Assembly: GCA_951813615.1 (NCBI GenBank)
Contig: OX638377.1
Coordinates: forward strand, 5,243,739-5,307,738
Direction of reading: 5' to 3'
Length of the DNA stretch: 64,000 bases
Source: an uncultured Latescibacterota bacterium
Lineage (GTDB): Bacteria > Latescibacterota > UBA2968 > UBA8231
Both the position numbers and the translations under genes were made by a program. Numbering within the stretch: position 1 is the stretch's first letter; the number at the start of each line of letters is the position of its first letter. Under the pieces are notes generated by a model that was not told where the DNA came from, made no database searches, and saw only the letters and a list, made by a program, of their open reading frames with translations. Shown piece after piece: positions 20,726-32,361 of this stretch.

Positions 20726-20839
20726 TTATGGGTTCGACTCTGTTCGTACACTTTCCACACCCGAAGCGGACGATAAGTACAGATATGCGGCTAAGGGCTT
20801 CCCTTTACGGTAGGTAATTTCCAAATAGTGTTCTCGCAA
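20726..20839 (-). pseudogene. DUF2283 gene, 5' fragment
   Basis: Reads REHYLEITYRKGKPLAAYLY, then LSSASGVESVRTES, before an abrupt change and a stop, nearly the same as the start of the complete gene at 24908. The ATG has been altered by a small deletion, so only a TTG could start it. Together with 19762-19833 it forms one DUF2283 gene split by the epimerase unit. Confidence 0.75.
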
Positions 20840-21656: not shown

Positions 21657-21684
21657 AGGCTTCGGTATGTCTAGATTCGTTCAT

Positions 21685-22092
21685 TCATCCTGGCTCAACT
21701 TGACCAATTTTCGCTATGATCGAGCGCAAATCCGGGTCTGAAAACTGATCTGACTTCAATACCTTGCCGTCCTCCCTGAATATGGGCTTACCCTGCTCAT
21801 CTAGCTTGCTCATGTTGCTGCGGTGGACTTCAGCAAAGAGCTCTGCGGCAATGTCCTGCAGACCATGCGCAATGAACGTACCCAGCAGTACGTAAAGCAT
21901 GTCTGTAAGGGCGTCTGCGATCTCGACGATGTCGTGGTTATGTACGGCCGCTCGATACTCTTCTAGCTCTTCCAAAAACATCTGGATACGCCCTTGGCTT
22001 ATCTCCGCCGGCACCGTTGCCGTAGGCGTGCTCTGCATGTATGCTTGGAACACCTCGTGAAAACATTTTACGCTATCTAGCTGATCTTTCAC
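21685..22092 (-). CDS. Phosphoribosyl-ATP pyrophosphohydrolase-like (MazG-like) protein, copy 1
   Basis: A 135-residue all-alpha NTP pyrophosphohydrolase-like protein. EELEEYRAAVHNHDIVEIADALTDMLYVLLGT holds the E-E-x-x-E and E-x-x-D metal-binding motifs. The C-terminal HRSNMSKLDEQGKPI then GKVLK is characteristic of this subgroup. GTG 22092 is preferred as the start because AGGAG lies about 7 nt upstream. It should hydrolyse a nucleoside triphosphate, perhaps as house-cleaning or defence. A decayed near-copy lies at 25170-25575. Confidence 0.82.
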   Translation of the reverse strand: MKDQLDSVKCFHEVFQAYMQSTPTATVPAEISQGRIQMFLEELEEYRAAVHNHDIVEIADALTDMLYVLLGTFIAHGLQDIAAELFAEVHRSNMSKLDEQGKPIFREDGKVLKSDQFSDPDLRSIIAKIGQVEPG

Positions 22093-22263: not shown

Positions 22264-22950
22264 TCAGCCGGTTGAGCGCCGACTGACGCGTTTGTACTGA
22301 CCACCGAAAGATACGTTCATTCCAAAGTTAAAATTGTTGGCCCCTGATTCCGTCGCGACCAACCCGTCCGGACCAAACTCTAGCTCAAGGCGATATTCAC
22401 CGACGGGGGTCTCTTCCCGAAAGCTGGGGATCTCTTCCCGAAAGATGGTCGAATTGTTGATCACGGGCGCAACGAAGGCCAAATCTCCGATGTTAGGACC
22501 TCTCGACCGAGAAGTTCCCCAAAGGGCAAATCCCTCGACTCGAACGCGACCATCTGCAAGGATGGATACATCGAACTCCGCCTCCTCGTTCGGCCCTTCG
22601 CGCACGTAGTGCCCAGCTATGGTTTGTATAGGTGGCTCCGCTCCCACGAACGATACCGGAGCGTTCCATTCCGAGGCGATCGCCTCGTGTAACTCGTCAC
22701 GGAATTGCCGGACTTCTCCGAGAGTAAGCCCCTTGCTCTGGCTTGTCGTCCCGTCGTACTTGTCGTGACATTCAAGACATAGAAACACGAGGTTGTTTAA
22801 GGCGCTGTTACTCGCGTTCTGATCTAGGTGCGCTATCTGACCACTCTTGATCGCGGTGTCGCGAGACAGGCCAAAACACATCGCGCACCGACGTCGGCAT
22901 CGGAGCAGTACCTGTTCTTCGACAGCCTTTGGCGTTTTGGGTCGGCTCAT
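22264..22950 (-). CDS. HNH endonuclease domain protein
   Basis: A 228-residue protein. Residues 15-75 form an HNH nuclease: CRRRCAMC knuckle, then IAHLDQNASNSALNNLVFLC and LECHDKYD, giving the H-N-H residues and two CxxC zinc pairs. The remaining 150 residues have no recognisable domain; they are beta-rich (EFDVSILADGRVRVEGFALWG) and may sense or bind something. Small HNH proteins in such arrays may act on DNA in defence. A weak GTAGG lies before the ATG. Confidence 0.83.
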   Translation of the reverse strand: MSRPKTPKAVEEQVLLRCRRRCAMCFGLSRDTAIKSGQIAHLDQNASNSALNNLVFLCLECHDKYDGTTSQSKGLTLGEVRQFRDELHEAIASEWNAPVSFVGAEPPIQTIAGHYVREGPNEEAEFDVSILADGRVRVEGFALWGTSRSRGPNIGDLAFVAPVINNSTIFREEIPSFREETPVGEYRLELEFGPDGLVATESGANNFNFGMNVSFGGQYKRVSRRSTG

Positions 22951-22972: not shown

Positions 22973-23069
22973 TCGCCTTCTCCTCACCCTGCCGTCGCCA
23001 ACCTCATACGGATTCTCCCGATTCGCCAGCGGCAAAGACACTCGCGTCCCCAAGCGCTGCGACTCGTGT
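22973..23069 (-). pseudogene. 3'-end remnant of a Gfo/Idh/MocA oxidoreductase gene
   Basis: The minus strand encodes HESQRLGTRVSLPLANRENPYE, identical in protein to the last conserved part of the oxidoreductase at 31044-32177, while the DNA differs at several positions. The upstream part of that gene is absent. Both copies have the same orientation and lie about 8 kb apart on either side of the defence genes, so this may mark an insertion border. Confidence 0.7.
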
Positions 23070-23072
23070 GAT

Positions 23073-23690
23073 TCATCTTATCCAGTCCTCTATGAACCTG
23101 ACATACTCAGGCACGGGCATCATTTGTAGATCTCTATCCCTAAAGCCCTCGGTTTTTCTCTTCTGATAGAAGTCCGCCATAAACTCGTTAAATTCCTCCC
23201 AAATCACGGTCCCACTAGGCAACTGTCCAATCCCCACCTCAACAAACCAGTTCCTCACCTGACGGACGACTTCCTCAGGTTTATCTTGGTGCCGCTTAAT
23301 GTCAGAATTCGACAGGTCAGACAAGGCTTTTTGGTACTCGTACTGTTCTGTTGCCAAGATCAAACACTGCTTTTGATTCAACAGGCCGCGAGAGAAGACC
23401 TTACAGCCGATGTCGAGACCCAGTTCAAAGGGCATGTTCATTCTGTAAGTCTCGCCCTTGAATGACGCCGACATCCTCGACAGATCATGTACACTGTATT
23501 TTGACTCACGTATCAATTCACAGATTCGATTGATCCGCGCAACTCCAGAGTCAAAAGTCTCCGAAGCAATCCTCACTGTCATGCCTGCTCGAACCACACT
23601 GAACAGCAGAGGTCTTAATAGGGGAATATACTCGTCATCGAAGGGGCAGTTGATGAAGACGTTGGTATGGAATTCTCCTCCGTCGTTCAC
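23073..23690 (-). CDS. TIR-like / nucleoside 2-deoxyribosyltransferase-like Rossmannoid protein
   Basis: A 205-residue protein. It begins VFINCPFDDEYIPLLRPLLF, followed by RIASETFDSGVARINRICELI, SKYSVHDLSRM and RMNMPFELGLDIG, whose Glu is placed like the catalytic glutamate of TIR and deoxyribosyltransferase folds. The C-terminal part is helical. Related proteins are common but, as far as I know, not assigned a function; NAD or nucleotide hydrolysis is plausible. GTG 23690 overlaps the stop of the DUF2188 gene (GTGA), so the two proteins are made together. Confidence 0.65.
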   Translation of the reverse strand: MNDGGEFHTNVFINCPFDDEYIPLLRPLLFSVVRAGMTVRIASETFDSGVARINRICELIRESKYSVHDLSRMSASFKGETYRMNMPFELGLDIGCKVFSRGLLNQKQCLILATEQYEYQKALSDLSNSDIKRHQDKPEEVVRQVRNWFVEVGIGQLPSGTVIWEEFNEFMADFYQKRKTEGFRDRDLQMMPVPEYVRFIEDWIR

Positions 23691-24638: not shown

Positions 24639-24908
24639 TCACACGGCTTCAAGCGGCGATAAGTCCTCCTCTTTCATAGGAGAAAGATCAAGGCTGCGTA
24701 AAACCTCGTTGATCTGCGCCGCCGTCATCTGCTCTGGTGCCGTGATTTCTAAACCAATGGGTTGATCTTCAGGGCCAAAATCCACTAATAAACCTGCATC
24801 TCTCGACTCTGTTCGTACACTTTTCATACCCGAAGCGGCCGATAAGTACAGATATGCGGCTAGGGGCTTCCCTTTACGGTAGGTAATTTCCAAATAGTGT
24901 TCTCGCAT
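24639..24908 (-). CDS. DUF2283 domain protein (complete copy)
   Basis: An 89-residue protein: MREHYLEITYRKGKPLAAYL, then LVDFGPEDQPIGLEITAPEQM with the beta hairpin typical of DUF2283, and a helical tail. GAGGAG lies 6 nt before the ATG. DUF2283 proteins are found in toxin-antitoxin-like pairs; here the partner is the DUF433 gene 10 nt upstream. Three further fragments of this gene lie in the window, so it belongs to a mobile or frequently duplicated unit. Confidence 0.85.
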   Translation of the reverse strand: MREHYLEITYRKGKPLAAYLYLSAASGMKSVRTESRDAGLLVDFGPEDQPIGLEITAPEQMTAAQINEVLRSLDLSPMKEEDLSPLEAV

Positions 24909-25119: not shown

Positions 25120-25169
25120 TCTGTGACCTCCATGTCTTTAAGAATATAAGCACACAAATATCAAGTCAT

Positions 25170-25575
25170 TCATCCTGACTCAACTGGACCAATTTTCGCT
25201 ATGATCGAGCGCAAATCCGGATCTGAAAACTGATCTGACTTCAATACTTTGCCGTCCTCCCTGAATATCGGCTTGCCCTGCTCATCTAGCTTGCTCATGT
25301 TGCTGCGGTGGACTTCAGCAAACAGCTCTTCGGCAATGTCCTGCAGACCATGCGTGATGAACGTACCCAGCAATACGTAAAGCATGTCTGTAAGGGCGTC
25401 TGCGATCTCGACGATGTCGTGGTTATGTACGGCCGCTTGATCCTCTTCTAGCTCCTCCAAAAACATCTGGATTCGCGATACGCCCTTGGCTTATCGCCGC
25501 CGGCACCGTTGCCGTAGGCGTGCGCTCCATATATGCTTCCTCGTGAAAACATCTCACGCTATCGAGCTTATTTTA
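25170..25575 (-). pseudogene. Phosphoribosyl-ATP pyrophosphohydrolase-like protein, copy 2, 5' end decayed
   Basis: From ATG 25466 the frame encodes a 98-residue product almost identical to the C-terminal part of copy 1 at 21685. Recognisable N-terminal sequence continues upstream to about 25570 at the DNA level but is broken by small insertions and deletions, so the first 35 residues are lost. The metal-binding EELEE and EIADALTD motifs remain. No ribosome site is seen at the internal ATG. The gap from 25576 to 25693 holds nothing I can name. Confidence 0.75.
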
Positions 25576-25693: not shown

Positions 25694-26137
25694 TTATTTA
25701 CCTGCTATTTTTGCAGCTTCCTCAATCCACCGTTCCAAACTTTCTTTTGAAGTGTATTTGTACGCCTTGAAACCATTTGCTCCGATTTGGAATGGAATAG
25801 CTCCTGGTGATCCTGTTTGCTTATGTTGATCTTTCAGATGATGAATTTGAACTGCGACTAGTCCGTTTCCTCGTGCAAGTGATTGATCGATCTCGTAATT
25901 GATGTATCTGCGATTCGCAGTGCCATAGGTTACGCAGACCACTGTTACAGAAGTGTTTTGTAACGCCTTATCGATCATTGGTTTAATAACTTTGTCTCCC
26001 TTTTTCTTTGATTCTTCCCATAGGGATGCGTCTTGGAATCCAGCAGCGGCTGAGCCAATTATATTTGGCATACTTCGTATCTGGTTTACCTTCCATACAT
26101 ACTTATAGTGAAAGCTGAAGAATACACGCCTAGCCAT
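25694..26137 (-). CDS. ThsB-like TIR protein (DUF1863)
   Basis: A 147-residue member of the MTH538/DUF1863 TIR-like group used as ThsB sensors in Thoeris. It starts RRVFFSFHYKYVWKVNQIR, then FQDASLWEESKKKGDKVIKPM and TSVTVVCVTYGT, and NRRYINYEIDQSLARGNGL with the catalytic-type Glu. No ThsA gene is present nearby. GGAGG lies 7 nt before the ATG, and the gene follows the cyclase by 34 nt, so it is likely co-transcribed. Probable role: NAD-derived signalling or NAD depletion during phage infection. Confidence 0.85.
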   Translation of the reverse strand: MARRVFFSFHYKYVWKVNQIRSMPNIIGSAAAGFQDASLWEESKKKGDKVIKPMIDKALQNTSVTVVCVTYGTANRRYINYEIDQSLARGNGLVAVQIHHLKDQHKQTGSPGAIPFQIGANGFKAYKYTSKESLERWIEEAAKIAGK

Positions 26138-26171
26138 TCTATCCTCCGTTGAAATTCTAGTTTATCGATTT

Positions 26172-27347
26172 TTATAGATCGATATCAGTGGCTTTGGACA
26201 AAAGGGTATTCAAACCTGCTACATAAGCGTCGTACGATCTGGTAGGTTTCTTTGTGAGCCAAGTGAAGTCGAAAGCTGGACAAGTTCTTACATCAACTCC
26301 CCAGATATATGGGCTAACATGAATTCGTCCCTCTGGCCTATCCCAATCCCAATAAGAAGCGAAATAGTAGGGGGTTGAATATTCCTTCAATGACCACGAG
26401 CTCGCGCATTCTGGTAGCAGGCTATGAAGTTGGTCAATGGTCTCTCTTTTTGCAGCTACTAGCTGATCGTGACTCCTATCATCACTTCTGATTTGCCTCA
26501 AGCCATCGTCACTCAAAAATAGAACGGATATTTCTGACCAAGGCGGATTTTTCACTTTGGTGTCTTTGGCTCTACGAAGAACGTCAGGGAGTTGATCATT
26601 GGTCGCGCCAATAAAGGCCGCCTTATCGTGCTTTTCGAAGAGCACTATAGGGGGGGCTTTCTTCTGAGGAACCCCAAGTTTGTCAACTGAGAGGATTGGT
26701 GGTTCGATTTGCAAGTGCCATTTTTCAAGAGGTGGCTTCGATAGACCAAAGTTCACTATAGTGTCGTCTACCTGTATTTGACCTGTGACTGATCGGACCG
26801 GAATTAGAATATTATGTTTGGCAAGAATTTCGTGTATATCTTTGGGACACACATAACTCATCCCCGATACTAATTCGCGCTCTGTCGCTAATCTTCGAGC
26901 TAATAAGTCGTGTATAAGTAGTTGGTCTGGTGCCGCGCTGTCCATCACTCGCTGGGCAATATTAATTGCAGTTCCAGATACATTTTCCTGACCATAAGGG
27001 TCAGTAACAGTATCAAGTTCTCCAGAGTTTATACCGCACCTAACACCTACCGGAGGCTCATGAAGTTTCGCCCAACCAAGTATGCGCGCCGCGATATACA
27101 CAGCTGTATCCTCTCGTGTTTCAAAGGCTGATCCTTTGTTCCAGATAATAACAGCAGCTCCATCGCCAGTAGGAAGGATCAGTGAATTGTCATGCGCTCC
27201 CCGGCTGAGATTCTCTTGGAAAACTTCGCTGATAAGGTCGCGAATGACATCCAAGAATTCTTGCGCTAGTTCGGATTGAGCAGGATCGGATTCGACAGAG
27301 AATCCAGCAAGGTCAAAGAATACGATAGTTCCACTTCGACTATTCAT
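26172..27347 (-). CDS. Class III nucleotide cyclase with unassigned C-terminal domain (Pycsar-like)
   Basis: A 391-residue protein. Residues 5-185 form a class III cyclase domain with both metal-binding aspartates (Asp12 in FFDLAGFS, Asp62 in PTGDGAA), the GxNSGE strand and the NIAQRVMD motif with Asn129 and Arg133. The C-terminal 180 residues match no family I know; the end (IHVSPYIWGVDVRT, CPAFDFTW) looks like a compact sensor or binding domain. No membrane segment is seen. Neighbouring TIR genes suggest a Pycsar-type anti-phage function, making cCMP/cUMP or another cyclic nucleotide. The start is ATG 27347; a TTG at 27365 is possible. Confidence 0.82.
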   Translation of the reverse strand: MNSRSGTIVFFDLAGFSVESDPAQSELAQEFLDVIRDLISEVFQENLSRGAHDNSLILPTGDGAAVIIWNKGSAFETREDTAVYIAARILGWAKLHEPPVGVRCGINSGELDTVTDPYGQENVSGTAINIAQRVMDSAAPDQLLIHDLLARRLATERELVSGMSYVCPKDIHEILAKHNILIPVRSVTGQIQVDDTIVNFGLSKPPLEKWHLQIEPPILSVDKLGVPQKKAPPIVLFEKHDKAAFIGATNDQLPDVLRRAKDTKVKNPPWSEISVLFLSDDGLRQIRSDDRSHDQLVAAKRETIDQLHSLLPECASSWSLKEYSTPYYFASYWDWDRPEGRIHVSPYIWGVDVRTCPAFDFTWLTKKPTRSYDAYVAGLNTLLSKATDIDL

Positions 27348-27874
27348 GAATAAATCGACCTCCAATGCTAGGAGTATTATTTGTGATATCAGGCTATTTG
27401 ATCTGTTATATTCTTATGAATCAGCTCTTCTCATTTGCCTTGCAAGATTGTACTCGCAGGTTTCTCTGTCAGCATGAGTTGCATCAATCAAGTAGTTCAG
27501 AGTCGATGGATTATTCGCGATTTTTCCCCAAGGTACTACTGAGATCCTAACTTCATTTTCGAGAAGATTATCGATAATGCGCGCAGGCATATATGGATAT
27601 CGCGATTCGTATTCACTTCTTGAATCAACCGTAGTCCAATTTGTTGTTTCTGGATACACTCTTTCTTTTTCTCCTGAGTGTGATGTGTTATAATATGAGC
27701 AATAGATACTTGGGAGATTTATAACAAGAATACCAGATTTCTTATTAACGGTGCCATCATACATACTTGAGTATATTTCCCAATCAATATATTTTCTTCT
27801 TGCTGTCTCTGTACCGATTAGTAAGATAGTCACTGTAGAATTGCGAAGATAGTTGTCTCGTATCAACTCTCTTA

Positions 27875-28816
27875 GAGCCTATACGAAAATTATGTTAATC
27901 GGTCGACGATCCGAAAAATGATGAGCACCGAAGCTACGTGAATTAATGCTTGGTAATGGGTACTTTTTTTCTCCCATCGGATCAGCAGTCGGCGGAACCG
28001 ATTATGCCAAGCATGGGTTCGTTCGACGACCCATCGCCGCGCCGGATGCTTCTTTTTGACGGGCCTCTTGGCCCTTTCGGCTTCACTCTTGGCTACGTGT
28101 AGATGATAGTCGCGTTCCTCGACTCCTTCGATGACATCGTCGTAGTTATAGCCTTGGTCCAGACACAGATGATGCAAACGATAGACGACTTTCTCCGGCC
28201 TTTTCACCACGAGGCCATCCAACGTCGCCAGCGCGACCGTTTTGTCATGCGTATTCGCGCCGGTTATTTCCACCGCCAGCGGCGCACCACGCTGGTCGGT
28301 CAACACCGACCGTTTGGTGCCCGTTTTACTCCGATCCACCGGGGAAGGACCCGTCGCTTCGCCGCCCAACGGCGCTTTGGTAATCACCCCGTCGAGGGCT
28401 TGCCATTTCCACGCAATGCCCACCTGCGTATCATAGTAGTGCAGCAGGGTTTGCCAAGCGTGGAGAAACACGCCTTGTTGAACCCAGTGTCGAAACCGGC
28501 CATGCACGGTCGATCCGGGGGCGTAGGTTTCCCGCGGAATAACCTGCCATTGACAGCCGCTGCGTAACACAAAGATAATGGCGTCGAAAAGGACGCGATT
28601 GGGCGTGGACGGACGCCCGACGGTGCCGGGTGGTTTGTCCGGCCCCAGAATCGGGGCAATCAAATCCCACAACGCATCCGGGGTACGCCAGATCGTATCC
28701 AGCGAATCGGTCTTGGTGGCCATGGCTTTCCTCCTCTTGGTTGAGGGCAAATGATACGGAAAGCGTAGGTCGCCAAGACCTTGTTATCAACTGGAAAGCA
28801 ATTTTCGTATAGGCTC
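27875..28816 (-). mobile_element. IS5-family insertion sequence, IS427 type, intact
   Basis: The 942-bp element has perfect 17-bp terminal inverted repeats (GAGCCTATACGAAAATT at 27875-27891 and its complement at 28800-28816). A 3-bp target duplication TTA flanks it at 27872-27874 and 28817-28819. GAG/CTC ends and a short TNA target match the IS427 group. It carries one complete transposase gene in the same direction as the interrupted TIR gene. The perfect ends and clean duplication point to recent insertion. Confidence 0.92.
27890..28723 (-). CDS. IS427-type transposase
   Basis: A 277-residue DDE transposase. It has an N-terminal WDLIAPILGP region with an HTH-like LRSGCQWQVIP segment. Catalytic residues are Asp in WQALDGVITKAP, Asp in LCLDQGYNYDDV and Glu in WVVERTHAWHNRFRR. 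The GPSPVDRSKTGTKRS block is characteristic of the group. GAGGAGG lies 6-7 nt before ATG 28723. All motifs are intact and the frame is unbroken, so it is likely active. Confidence 0.92.
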   Translation of the reverse strand: MATKTDSLDTIWRTPDALWDLIAPILGPDKPPGTVGRPSTPNRVLFDAIIFVLRSGCQWQVIPRETYAPGSTVHGRFRHWVQQGVFLHAWQTLLHYYDTQVGIAWKWQALDGVITKAPLGGEATGPSPVDRSKTGTKRSVLTDQRGAPLAVEITGANTHDKTVALATLDGLVVKRPEKVVYRLHHLCLDQGYNYDDVIEGVEERDYHLHVAKSEAERAKRPVKKKHPARRWVVERTHAWHNRFRRLLIRWEKKSTHYQALIHVASVLIIFRIVDRLT

Positions 28817-29030
28817 TTATGGTTTGGGCAGGTAAGTTCTCATCGATATCACCTGTGTCCACAGACATATCGATGAAAATTTCACACTGGGAATTTATCC
28901 TCAATAATTCGTTCTTGTAATACCAGTCGTTGTCATGGTGGTAACTGATAAAAATCCTATGCATAGTGTACTCTCTCCTTGCAAATAATCTCTTTAGTTA
29001 TATGACCATGACCAAATTTGATGAAGGAGT

Positions 29031-29576
29031 TTATCCAGCCTTTCTAAGCCACTGTCGCAAAGGTGTTGCTCTATTCTTCACATGATCATGGACTATCCAT
29101 TCAGCGTTATCTCTCCCTTTTATCCTTCCCCGTACAATTCGCTGATACAAGCCCAAATATTCTTGTCGCGCCCACTGTTGATCAGTGCTGTCTGTTGTAG
29201 TCGGGAAAAGCGCTATCTGACGGGTATTCTTCTCGCCATCAGCAAGACCAAGTTCCCAAGGAATCCAACGACTACCCTTGCTGTTAATTGTTACAAATAC
29301 TACGAAGAGGGGACATGATTTTATTGTAGAACGCAATATTTCGGCTGTTTCGCGATTAGGGTGATTTGGCAGCCGCTGGTCGTCTTTATCGATATATACC
29401 GATCCGCCATGATTCTGTAGAATAGAGATTATAGCTGAAAGATATTCAGCATCCCGCGACGAATGTGCGAGAAAAACGGTCTTACCAATCTTTGAGGCCG
29501 ATGCCTCCTTTAGCATTACCGATTCATTTAGATGCTGACGGGATCTTTCGAGGTCTCCAAATGTTGCGAAATTCAC
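29031..29576 (-). CDS. TIR domain protein
   Basis: A 181-residue protein with one TIR domain (about residues 32-150): TVFLAHSSRDAEYLSAIISIL, then GSVYIDKDDQRLP and SCPLFVVFVT, and SRWIPWELGLADG, in which Glu sits in the position of the catalytic NADase residue. The N-terminal 30 residues are helical. The likely starts are GTG 29576 or TTG 29579; a short upstream frame stops exactly there. It is the first gene of the cyclase/TIR cluster and lies 31 bp from the left end of the IS1595-type element, which may have separated it from its promoter. Confidence 0.83.
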   Translation of the reverse strand: MNFATFGDLERSRQHLNESVMLKEASASKIGKTVFLAHSSRDAEYLSAIISILQNHGGSVYIDKDDQRLPNHPNRETAEILRSTIKSCPLFVVFVTINSKGSRWIPWELGLADGEKNTRQIALFPTTTDSTDQQWARQEYLGLYQRIVRGRIKGRDNAEWIVHDHVKNRATPLRQWLRKAG

Positions 29577-29713
29577 CAAGTTGCCTTACCCCCAATGGAA
29601 TTTAATGATAGGCTCATTATGGATTCCGGGGAGTTGTCTTGAAGGGGTAATCCCACCGGCTTATCTTGGTGCTGTGCGCCCTTTTTCCTTGCCTTCCAAT
29701 CTGGCTTTTCACC

Positions 29714-30660
29714 ATGGTCAATATCCAACATCTCATCGATGATGCCAAATGCTTTGAAACGGTTCGCGCCTTGCGCTGGTCCGATGGTATTTTCTGTCCG
29801 CATTGTGGTTCGGCTCGGCTTATTAAGCGGGGCTTTGATGACACGCAGCCTGATCGCCAACGCTACCGATGCCACGGCTGTGCTCGGGACTTTGATGATT
29901 TGACCGGCACCGTGTTAGCGGGTCACCACCAACCGTTACGGGTTTGGATTTTGTGTCTGTATTTCATGGGCTTAAATCTATCCAACCGGCAAATTGCCCA
30001 AGAATTGGGATTGAATAAAGATGATGCGCAGCACATGACCACGCACCTGCGGCAAGGCCTCGTCGCCCAGCAGGAGCCCGCTGGTCTTGATGGGGTAGTC
30101 GAGTGCGATGAAGTCTATATTGTGGCCGGTCATAAGGGGCATCCTACCGCGGTGAAAAAAAAGGCCGAACAGGACGACGCAACCGACTCAAAGGCCGTCG
30201 AGGGCGGGGCACCTTAGCCGGAGAAAAACCGCCGATCTTAGGCATGATTCAACGCGGGGGAGAGGTGTGCATTCAGATGCTGGAGAATGTCCAGCAAAAA
30301 ACCATTGAGCCGCTGATTAAAAAGGCGATTGCCCCGGGCACACTCATTTATACCGATGAGTACAACATCTACGGGCGGCTGGAAGCTTGGGGCTATACCC
30401 ATGCCGTGGTTCATCATGGCCAGGGGGAATTCGCACGGGATGACGATCAAGATGGTTTTGGTGAAGTACATGTCAATACGATGGAAGGGTTTTGGTCCTT
30501 GTTACGCTCTTGGTTGAGACCCCACCGAGGGATCTCGCAGGAAAAACTCCCGTTGTATCTGGGCTTCTTTCAATTCGTTCATAACATAAGAAAAAGGGGC
30601 AAAGCGCTCCTAGAAAGCCTCATTAAAGGCATTCTGGGAATAGCTCCCTGCAATCCATAA
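29714..30660 (+). CDS. IS1595-family transposase encoded in two frames
   Basis: The first part (from ATG 29714) has a zinc ribbon (CPHCGS and YRCHGCARDF), an HTH-like RQIAQELGLNKDDAQ region and the first catalytic Asp in VECDEVYIVAGHKG. After AVKKK this frame runs into an unrelated stop at 30217. The second frame continues the expected sequence (GRTGRRNRLKGRRGRGTLAGEK, then LIYTDEYNIYGR, and HVNTMEGFWSLLRSW) to 30660. Joining at A_AAA_AAG (30157-30163) gives about 315 residues, the usual family length. Either -1 frameshifting or a one-base deletion explains this. Confidence 0.85.
30157..30163 (+). promoter_or_regulatory. A_AAA_AAG slippery heptamer in the transposase gene
   Basis: Within an 8-A run (GTG AAA AAA AAG G) the last seven bases form A_AAA_AAG in phase with the upstream frame. 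A -1 slip here makes the ribosome read GGC CGA ACA next, exactly the frame that encodes the rest of the transposase with no stop between. This is the dnaX/IS3-type slippery site. A short CGACG/CGTCG stem can form downstream but is weak. Confidence 0.6.
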
Positions 30661-30674
30661 TGAGCCTAATGATA

Positions 30675-31043: not shown

Positions 31044-32177
31044 TCACCTCTCCCCATCCTCCCGCCGCCAAGTCTCATACGGATTCTCCCGATTCGCCAG
31101 CGGCAAAGACACCCGCGTCCCCAACCGCTGCGACTCGTGCACCGCCATGATCATTTCCAGCGCCGCTCGCCCGTCCTCGCCGCTGGAACAGGCCCGCACC
31201 GGTCGATCCTCCTCAATGGCTTGGATCAATTCCCGCACAATGATCAAATTGCTCTGGTGCGTGCGCTCGCCCGCCGAATACTGTTCCCACTCGTCCAACA
31301 GCACCCGTTCCCAAGTGCCGTTTTCCTCACCGGGAATCCATAAGCCTTGGCGATAGATGTACATCTCGCCGTTGGGCGAATTGCGCAGGGCGATGATGCC
31401 CTCGCTGCCGTGCGCCTCAAAACCGAACCAACGGCTGTTGGCCCCTTTTGGATAGCCCGGTTGCGACTCAAAATGCGCAGTCACCCCATTGGCAAAAACG
31501 TAGTACGCCGCCACCCCGTTGCCGGCGATCAAGCCGATGCGCTCGTCCCCTTCCCGCACATCGTCCAACGTCACCTCGCGCCCATCCTGCGTGACGTGCC
31601 CGTGCGCCCAAACCACCTCGGCCCCGGCGAAGTAGCGCATGCTGTCCATCATGTGCGTGCCCAAGACCATCAGATCCTGCGACCCAGCCCGGTGGTCGGA
31701 CTTGCCGTGGCTACGCAGCACTTGTAGCTGGCCGATAACGCCCTCGTCAACCAGCTTTTTGCCGTACTGCTCGTAGGGATTGGCGCGCCGGTGCGCCACC
31801 GCAGTCTTGACGCCGTGCTCCTGACAGGCCGCCAACAGGGCGTCGGCTTCGCGCAGAGTGGGCGTCAGCGGCTTCTCGATAAACACGCCGCGCACCCCGG
31901 CCTCAGCGCAGGCGATGACCATGTCGGCGTGGCAGTCGGGCATCCGCGGACAGACGCTGACTATATCCAAGTCCTCGTCGGCGAGCATCTGGCGGTAATC
32001 GGCGTAGAGCCGCTGGGCACCCGTGCGCTCGCCGGCTGCGGCGCGGCCCTCGGGATCGGGGTCGGCCACCGCGAGTAAATCCACTTGCTCCAAGTCCCGG
32101 TAAACGGTTTCCAGCCCGTGGCCGTAGTCGCCGGCACCCGTGCGCCCGATGACTCCGGCTTTATAGCGCTTGCTCAT
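31044..32177 (-). CDS. Gfo/Idh/MocA family oxidoreductase
   Basis: A 377-residue NAD(P)-dependent sugar or inositol dehydrogenase-like protein. The nucleotide-binding start is AGVIGRTGAGDYGHG. CPRMPDCHADMVIACAEAGV leads to VFIEKPLT, the conserved EKP motif. GTHMMDSMRYFAG corresponds to the G-x-H-x-x-D substrate region. AAGGAGG lies about 8 nt before ATG 32177. A remnant of a related gene's 3' end lies at 22973-23069. Substrate probably a sugar or its derivative. Confidence 0.9.
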   Translation of the reverse strand: MSKRYKAGVIGRTGAGDYGHGLETVYRDLEQVDLLAVADPDPEGRAAAGERTGAQRLYADYRQMLADEDLDIVSVCPRMPDCHADMVIACAEAGVRGVFIEKPLTPTLREADALLAACQEHGVKTAVAHRRANPYEQYGKKLVDEGVIGQLQVLRSHGKSDHRAGSQDLMVLGTHMMDSMRYFAGAEVVWAHGHVTQDGREVTLDDVREGDERIGLIAGNGVAAYYVFANGVTAHFESQPGYPKGANSRWFGFEAHGSEGIIALRNSPNGEMYIYRQGLWIPGEENGTWERVLLDEWEQYSAGERTHQSNLIIVRELIQAIEEDRPVRACSSGEDGRAALEMIMAVHESQRLGTRVSLPLANRENPYETWRREDGER

Positions 32178-32361
32178 AATTCGCCCTCCTTCTCGCTTTG
32201 ATTCATTTGATGACTTGGTGTTACGTCGATGGTATGAGTCGCCGGTGGCTAGTGGTATAAGTAGGAGACGAACCACTAACCGCTAAGCCAGCAAGAGGAA
32301 TTTTGAGAACACTTCTAACGACGTGAACTCGTCCGCTGGCTACCGGTATGAGGGGGAAGTT

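What the first reader, a model, noticed from the sequence alone, without database searches (positions are those of the whole stretch)
25694..29576. Nucleotide cyclase flanked by three TIR-type proteins: candidate Pycsar/Thoeris-like hybrid defence system
Four minus-strand genes with gaps of 34-66 bp encode a TIR protein, a ThsB-like TIR protein (now interrupted), a class III cyclase with intact metal and transition-state residues, and a second ThsB-like TIR protein. Pycsar pairs a pyrimidine cyclase with one effector, and Thoeris pairs ThsB with ThsA. Here no ThsA and no cyclic-nucleotide-binding effector is seen, while three different TIR folds accompany one cyclase. This set may be an undescribed signalling arrangement.
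Basis: partly seen in the sequence, partly recalled or inferred. Interest (0 to 1): 0.85.

Follow-up and report, generated by a model that had tools for sequence, protein, structure and literature searches.

The report
Three TIR sensors with a nucleotide cyclase
A foreign-looking bacterial operon holds three TIR proteins of the kind that raise the alarm in Thoeris anti-phage defence, but where Thoeris has its killing protein it has a rare two-part nucleotide cyclase; this looks like an undescribed variant of TIR immunity, although one of its genes is broken by a jumping element in this genome.

Summary
Window 25694-29579 (minus strand) holds TIR-A, TIR-B, a class III cyclase and TIR-C in one tight, AT-rich operon. 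TIR-B is split by a 942-bp IS5-type element with a TTA target duplication; its frame is otherwise intact. All three TIRs match ThsB (Thoeris sensor) profiles. No SIR2-SLOG or TM-macro ThsA, ThcA/ThcB4, CNB domain or TM gene was found in the operon; the SLOG profile of ThcA is absent from the whole genome. The cyclase is a two-domain protein: a class III cyclase with metal and transition-state residues kept but base-selecting residues changed to Leu/Asn, plus a conserved C-terminal domain unknown to Pfam whose model resembles a degenerate phospholipase-D fold. Full-length relatives are rare: three Magnetococcia plus a partial and a remnant, and one Verrucomicrobiota genome (44% identical). Two of the four intact relatives have a TIR gene immediately beside them; the closest one does not. 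The three-TIR-plus-cyclase set was seen only here. "Pycsar/Thoeris hybrid" is partly supported: the TIRs are Thoeris-like; Pycsar membership is not shown. Best reading: a Thoeris-like TIR array with a cyclase protein in the effector slot. Signal direction is unresolved.

The parts
29031..29579 (-). TIR-A, 182 aa, ThsB-like TIR (TIR_2 type), PWELG glutamate present; start codon TTG
   Evidence: TIR_2 7.9e-9; PDLC00436 1.9e-58; 8btn_B 1.1e-21
28817..28964 (-). TIR-B N-terminal piece (about 49 aa before the IS)
   Evidence: (PF08937 weak, 0.066); Shine-Dalgarno AAGGAG upstream of ATG
27875..28816 (-). IS5-type insertion sequence (DUF4096 + DDE_Tnp_1 transposase, ORF 27890-28750), 18-bp inverted repeats, TTA target duplication
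27414..27874 (-). TIR-B C-terminal piece, ThsB_TIR, DWEI glutamate present (the TTA at 27872-27874 is the target duplicate)
   Evidence: PF08937 1.1e-10; PDLC00431 5.8e-10
26172..27365 (-). Two-domain cyclase protein (397 aa from TTG; likely start ATG 27347, 391 aa, GGAGG upstream)
26841..27335 (-). Class III nucleotide cyclase domain, residues about 11-175; D18, D68, N135, R139 intact; Leu64/Asn128 at base-selecting positions
26172..26816 (-). Conserved C-terminal domain, residues about 184-397, motif ASxxDW...GxIHVSPYxW...CPxxDxxW; degenerate PLD-like fold by weak structural match
   Evidence: no Pfam match
25694..26137 (-). TIR-C, 147 aa, ThsB (DUF1863) family; closest plasmid relatives (56-58% id) belong to type III Thoeris loci
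29609..30668 (+). IS1595-like element upstream of the operon (transposase-like ORFs 29666-30217 and 30244-30660); a flank of the locus, not part of the system
   Evidence: 25-nt inverted repeats; family name from sequence resemblance only

Best explanation
A horizontally acquired Thoeris-like defence operon in which three ThsB-family TIR proteins act as infection sensors and NAD+-processing signal makers, and in which the place of the usual effector (SIR2-SLOG, TM-macro or SLOG) is taken by a two-domain protein: a class III nucleotide cyclase followed by a conserved, degenerate PLD-like domain. Most likely the TIRs detect the phage and make an NAD-derived messenger, or form a complex, that acts on the C-terminal domain and switches the cyclase on. 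The cyclase then makes a cyclic mononucleotide, or drains an NTP pool, that stops the cell. In this genome the system is probably off or impaired, because an IS splits TIR-B. Shown: gene content and order, family membership of the TIRs, intact cyclase catalytic residues, conservation of the two-domain protein in three phyla, an adjacent TIR gene in two of its four intact relatives, the IS. Inferred: defence role, direction of signalling, cyclase activity, substrate and output.
For: All three TIRs match ThsB profiles and keep the catalytic glutamate motifs. Homologous TIR-A/TIR-C genes elsewhere sit in loci whose non-TIR partner varies: SIR2-SLOG ThsA in Sinorhizobium (L034), ThcB4+ThcA in Acidithiobacillus, Indioceanicola and Sphingobium, SLOG-patatin plus ThcB4/ThcA in Klebsiella, and in the own phylum a SLOG2-TIR fusion or a 2TM protein (PDC-M50A). 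So a swap of partner is a common mode of variation, and here the only non-TIR partner is the cyclase. The cyclase + C-terminal domain is one conserved unit (44% identity over full length to L223, 25-32% to Magnetococcia). In L107 a TIR gene overlaps the cyclase end by 4 nt on the same strand; in L199 a TIR-WD40 gene is the divergent neighbour. Those genomes have only 2 and 8 TIR_2 loci, so two of three informative Magnetococcia copies having a TIR next door by chance is of order 1e-5 (own arithmetic, island clustering ignored). Operon GC is 42-45% against 50-62% around. No TIR carries a CNB domain, which speaks against the cyclase acting upstream of them in the known Pycsar way. Thoeris is described as one ThsA and one or multiple ThsB, with two effector types (PMC11204291), and paired TIR sensors cooperate in Sau-Thoeris (PMC11312562).
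Against: The three-TIR + cyclase set was found once only. The closest cyclase relative (L223) and L200 have no TIR neighbour. The TIR partners in L107 and L199 are not ThsB-type, and the L107 TIR scores below Pfam's cut-off. No recognised signal-binding domain (SLOG, macro) is present: the C-terminal domain's PLD resemblance is weak (Foldseek E 0.02 and 0.002, TM 0.40-0.44). No killing domain is present. No activity, substrate or phage data exist. The copy is interrupted.
Confidence: 0.4

Rival explanations
1. Pycsar-like order: the cyclase senses infection and makes a cyclic mononucleotide, and one or more TIR proteins are the NAD+-depleting effectors.
For: Cyclase-TIR gene neighbours in L107 and L199 have the same two-part layout as Pycsar with PycTIR. 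Magnetococcia members match the PycC model PDLC00734 at 2e-8 to 4e-11, better than two ordinary class III cyclases match their best PycC model (3e-4 and 1e-3). The solved uridylate cyclase 8jsz is among the profile's PDB hits at 0.0018.
Against: PycTIR senses cUMP through an N-terminal CNB domain (PMC11224242); no TIR in the window, nor the TIR-WD40 of L199, has a recognised one. The window cyclase itself hits no PycC model. Pyrimidine-selecting residues reported for PycC (Y/D/R, F/K/F, F/R/Q) are not matched as a set: F16, L64, T66.
Confidence: 0.17
2. Decayed Thoeris-type TIR array that lost its SLOG effector, with the cyclase a passenger acquired in the same island.
For: TIR-B is broken by an IS, a second IS (IS1595-like) sits directly upstream of TIR-A, and the region carries partial duplications. 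ThcA is absent from the genome and the phylum. L223 and L200 show that the cyclase can stand alone.
Against: The cyclase lies between TIR-B and TIR-C with 34-48 bp gaps and a ribosome-binding site, inside one AT-rich block. The same two-domain cyclase is next to TIR genes in two unrelated genomes. Apart from the IS, every gene is in frame.
Confidence: 0.27
3. Catalytically silent receptor: the cyclase-like domain and the PLD-like domain bind nucleotides (for example a TIR product) and the TIRs do the killing by NAD+ depletion.
For: The purine-selecting Lys and Asp/Thr of class III cyclases are Leu64 and Asn128 in all five homologues, and the PLD-like domain lacks HKD in the window protein.
Against: Both metal Asp and both transition-state residues are invariant across three phyla. 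An ordinary LPTGDG cyclase shares the Leu/Asn pair (sequence of L136), so it may mark another substrate rather than loss of activity.
Confidence: 0.1

Closest known systems
Thoeris type I (ThsA SIR2-SLOG + one or more ThsB)
   Same: ThsB-family TIRs, several per operon; TIR-A/TIR-C homologues occur in a ThsA operon in Sinorhizobium medicae (L034)
   Different: no SIR2-SLOG ThsA in the operon; a cyclase protein stands in its place
Thoeris type III (NCBIfam ThcA/ThcB4)
   Same: closest relatives of TIR-C (56-58%) are the small ThsB-like TIRs of these loci (L035, L036)
   Different: no ThcA (SLOG cluster 3) and no ThcB4 in the operon; the ThcA domain also not found anywhere in the genome or phylum
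Thoeris with TM-macro ThsA
   Same: ThsB sensor plus swappable effector
   Different: no TM-macro protein
Pycsar (PycC + PycTIR or PycTM)
   Same: class III cyclase next to a TIR gene, especially in the Magnetococcia pairs
   Different: no CNB or TM effector; window cyclase outside the PADLOC PycC profiles; extra PLD-like C-terminal domain; three TIRs
PADLOC candidate PDC-M50 (2TM protein + ThsB)
   Same: TIR-C matches PDC-M50B (1e-40); the pair exists in relatives (L209, L213, L214)
   Different: no PDC-M50A (2TM) gene in the window operon
Ordinary LPTGDG class III cyclases (Verrucomicrobia, Gallionella)
   Same: same catalytic domain type; the one read (L136) has the same Leu/Asn at base-selecting positions
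   Different: none of the others kept from the scan shows a match to the IHVSPYxW C-terminal domain; some are long multi-domain proteins

Membership tests
Thoeris | ThsB TIR protein(s) | tested here: met
   PF08937 and PADLOC ThsB models, PDB 9b7d/6lhy/8btn
Thoeris | ThsA effector (SIR2-SLOG or TM-macro) in the operon | tested here: not met
   the only non-TIR operon gene is the cyclase; no SIR2, STALD or macro hit; STALD not searched genome-wide
Thoeris type III | ThcA SLOG-cluster-3 protein and ThcB4 TIR | tested here: not met
   NCBIfam scan of the operon genes; PF18180 absent in own genome and 64 phylum genomes
Thoeris | TIRs make an NAD-derived messenger on infection | not testable with these tools
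   catalytic glutamate motifs present in all three TIRs (sequence)
Pycsar | PycC pyrimidine cyclase | tested here: inconclusive
   window protein: no PADLOC PycC hit; relatives weak hits to PDLC00734; class III fold supported
Pycsar | adjacent effector that binds the cyclic nucleotide (CNB domain with TIR, TM or other) | tested here: not met
   no CNB domain in any of the TIRs, nor in the L199 TIR-WD40 protein
PDC-M50 candidate system | 2TM protein (PDC-M50A) next to ThsB (PDC-M50B) | tested here: not met
   PDC-M50B met by TIR-C; no 2TM gene in the operon; pair present in relatives
HKD phospholipase D | HxK(x)4D motif | tested here: not met
   absent in the window, L223, L199 and L200; L107 has one match, at residue 300, away from the conserved HVSPY motif

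The most novel reading that the evidence does not exclude
A two-messenger immune relay: TIR sensors turn NAD+ into one messenger that, through a degenerate PLD-like receptor domain, switches on a class III cyclase that makes a second cyclic-nucleotide messenger or drains an NTP pool. This would be a Thoeris class with a nucleotide cyclase as effector, and cyclase-TIR pairs in Magnetococcia would be its minimal form.
Probability: 0.22. Interest if true: 0.88.

Novelty: new variant of a known kind. Interest (0 to 1): 0.6.

Why it matters
Thoeris and Pycsar are treated as separate signalling defences, one built on NAD-derived messengers and one on cyclic mononucleotides. An operon with Thoeris sensors and a cyclase in the effector slot, plus cyclase-TIR neighbours in other bacteria, gives concrete sequences with which to ask whether the two chemistries are coupled. 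It also defines a conserved cyclase + PLD-like protein that had no family name in the libraries searched.

Tried and rejected
Single-protein scans of IMG/VR and tblastn of phages and plasmids with the window cyclase found nothing. IMG/VR scans with alignments gave only generic class III cyclases or nothing. The first alignment used to scan (A2) held typed-in motif probes, not real homologues; it served only to find candidates, which were then judged on real sequences. Plasmid and phage searches with the homologues gave generic cyclase-domain hits or none. Acidobacteriota: 0 of 396 genomes. AlphaFold of the full cyclase with four sequences was poor (pLDDT 41) and not used; only the C-terminal model (pLDDT 67.6) was searched. 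Literature searches for 'type III Thoeris', 'ThcA' and cyclase + TIR conflict systems returned nothing useful. A plain Pycsar assignment was rejected for lack of a CNB effector. A plain Thoeris assignment was rejected for lack of ThsA. TIR-B was analysed as two separate pieces; the insert was not removed.
Full report
What is there. On the minus strand, window 29579-25694 reads TIR-A (182 aa), TIR-B (split), cyclase (397 aa from TTG, or 391 aa from the ATG at 27347, which has GGAGG upstream and matches the start of the closest homologue) and TIR-C (147 aa), with gaps of 66, 48 and 34 bp. GC is 42-45% inside and 50-62% around. TIR-B carries a 942-bp IS5-type element (27875-28816; DUF4096 + DDE_Tnp_1) with 18-bp inverted repeats and a TTA duplication; without the element and one duplicate the gene length is a multiple of three, so no other lesion is visible. 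An IS1595-like element lies directly upstream of TIR-A (inverted repeats 29609-29633/30644-30668).

The TIRs are Thoeris-type. TIR-C and TIR-B match ThsB_TIR, TIR-A matches TIR_2, and all three match PADLOC ThsB models. TIR-C aligns with B. cereus ThsB1 and TIR-A with 8btn_B. In plasmids, relatives of TIR-A and TIR-C lie in loci with a variable partner: SIR2-STALD ThsA in Sinorhizobium medicae; ThcB4 + ThcA, the NCBIfam type III Thoeris proteins, in Acidithiobacillus, Indioceanicola and Sphingobium; SLOG-patatin plus ThcB4/ThcA in a Klebsiella plasmid. In the window's own phylum, ThsB genes are in 21 of 64 genomes, with a 2TM partner (PADLOC PDC-M50A), a SLOG-patatin partner (L210) or a SLOG2-TIR fusion (L208). 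The window set has none of these: PF18180 is absent from the genome and phylum, and no CNB, SLOG, macro or SIR2 domain is found in the operon.

The cyclase protein is a rare two-domain family. No relative was found in 63 other phylum genomes except one weak generic hit, nor in phages, plasmids or IMG/VR. Profile searches then found full-length copies in G123 and G072 plus a partial one in G147, all four (with L107) in Magnetococcia (4 of 48), and one copy 44% identical over the full length in a Verrucomicrobiota genome (1 of 388; L223). Acidobacteriota gave none (0 of 396). A 50-residue remnant remains in G131. The Asp18/Asp68 metal ligands and Asn135/Arg139 are invariant in the five full-length members; the base-selecting positions are Leu64 and Asn128 in all, so the substrate cannot be read from sequence. 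In a tree of the catalytic domains the window protein pairs with L223 (100/99) and the Magnetococcia copies form a second clade (100/99); one origin of the family is not excluded.

The C-terminal domain (about residues 184-397) has an invariant core (Y334, A336, S337, D340, W341, G346, H349, S351, Y353, W355, C362, P363, D366, W369) and no Pfam match. Its AlphaFold model from five sequences has pLDDT 67.6 and pTM 0.67, with the core mostly at 74-95. The four best PDB matches are all PLD-superfamily enzymes (best E. coli phosphatidylserine synthase, E 0.02, probability 0.96, TM 0.44), and the best viral match is a PLD protein (E 0.002, probability 0.99). The E-values are weak, so the PLD-like assignment is a lead rather than a proof; the HKD motif is missing in the window protein.

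Neighbourhoods of the relatives. L107: a TIR gene overlaps the cyclase by 4 nt on the same strand (contig ends inside it; TIR_2 2.5e-4, below Pfam's cut-off). L199: a divergent 1272-aa TIR-WD40 gene (TIR_2 2.9e-7). L200: housekeeping genes only. L223: no TIR on the contig, but a convergent 181-aa gene whose homologue (38%, 4e-23) opens the TIR array of L208 in the window's phylum. G064, G123 and G072 hold 2, 8 and 5 TIR_2 loci, so adjacency in two of three by chance is of order 1e-5 if genes were placed independently (own arithmetic; defence islands make the true figure larger).

Interpretation. Thoeris has one ThsA and one or several ThsB, with two published effector types (PMC11204291), and two TIR sensors can cooperate (PMC11312562). 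The window fits the sensor half and replaces the effector by the cyclase protein; in that frame the C-terminal domain would be the receptor and the cyclase the output. The alternative, Pycsar-like, order needs a TIR that binds a cyclic nucleotide; known PycTIR does this with an N-terminal CNB domain (PMC11224242), which is absent here. A third reading, a decayed Thoeris array with a passenger cyclase, stays possible because the full set was seen once, is broken, and two relatives of the cyclase have no TIR. A functional cyclase-TIR link is held to be somewhat more likely than not; the direction of signalling is inference.

Noticed in passing
L041-L104 (IMG/VR), e.g. L041:4783-6561: Many viral contigs encode class III cyclases; the one read (L041) is a 592-aa ankyrin-repeat protein with a C-terminal class III cyclase domain (LPTGDG type), near phage-like genes. 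A phage-borne cyclase could bear on cyclic-nucleotide defence or counter-defence.
   Followed up: partly
L210:6789-8108 (G019:C84) and L039:7118-8734 (Klebsiella variicola plasmid): A SLOG-patatin protein next to ThsB-type TIRs is 77% identical between a contig of the window's phylum and an enterobacterial plasmid: a Thoeris-like system with a phospholipase effector, recently transferred or a contaminant contig.
   Followed up: partly
L208:5541-9836 (G039): Array of a 180-aa helical-looking protein, TIR-B-like TIR, 406-aa TIR, SLOG2-TIR fusion and another TIR, followed by a 198-aa protein and a restriction-type specificity gene. The 180-aa family also sits beside the cyclase in L223 (38% identity) and has no Pfam match.
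   Followed up: partly
window 21681-22088 and 25166-25574; 20734-20838 and 24803-24907: A PRA-PH/MazG-like gene and nearby segments are duplicated (about 95%); the second copy ends right beside the operon, so repeats mark the edge of the variable island.
   Followed up: partly
window 23003-23068 and 31074-31139: A 66-bp piece of the Gfo/Idh-like dehydrogenase gene at 31044-32276 is repeated (97%) at 23003-23068, bracketing the 8-kb region that holds the operon.
   Followed up: no
window 23073-23690 and 22264-22950: A 205-aa orphan protein (FINCPFDDEY..., no family above cut-off) lies next to an HNH-like gene; it may be a further defence-type gene.
   Followed up: no
window 29609-30668: The IS1595-like element's transposase is in two ORFs (29666-30217, 30244-30660), which suggests a frameshifted, inactive copy.
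   Followed up: no
L228:8517-8678 (G131:C67): Only the last 50 or so residues of the cyclase protein remain, with no open frame before them: gene decay, consistent with a patchy, dispensable gene.
   Followed up: yes
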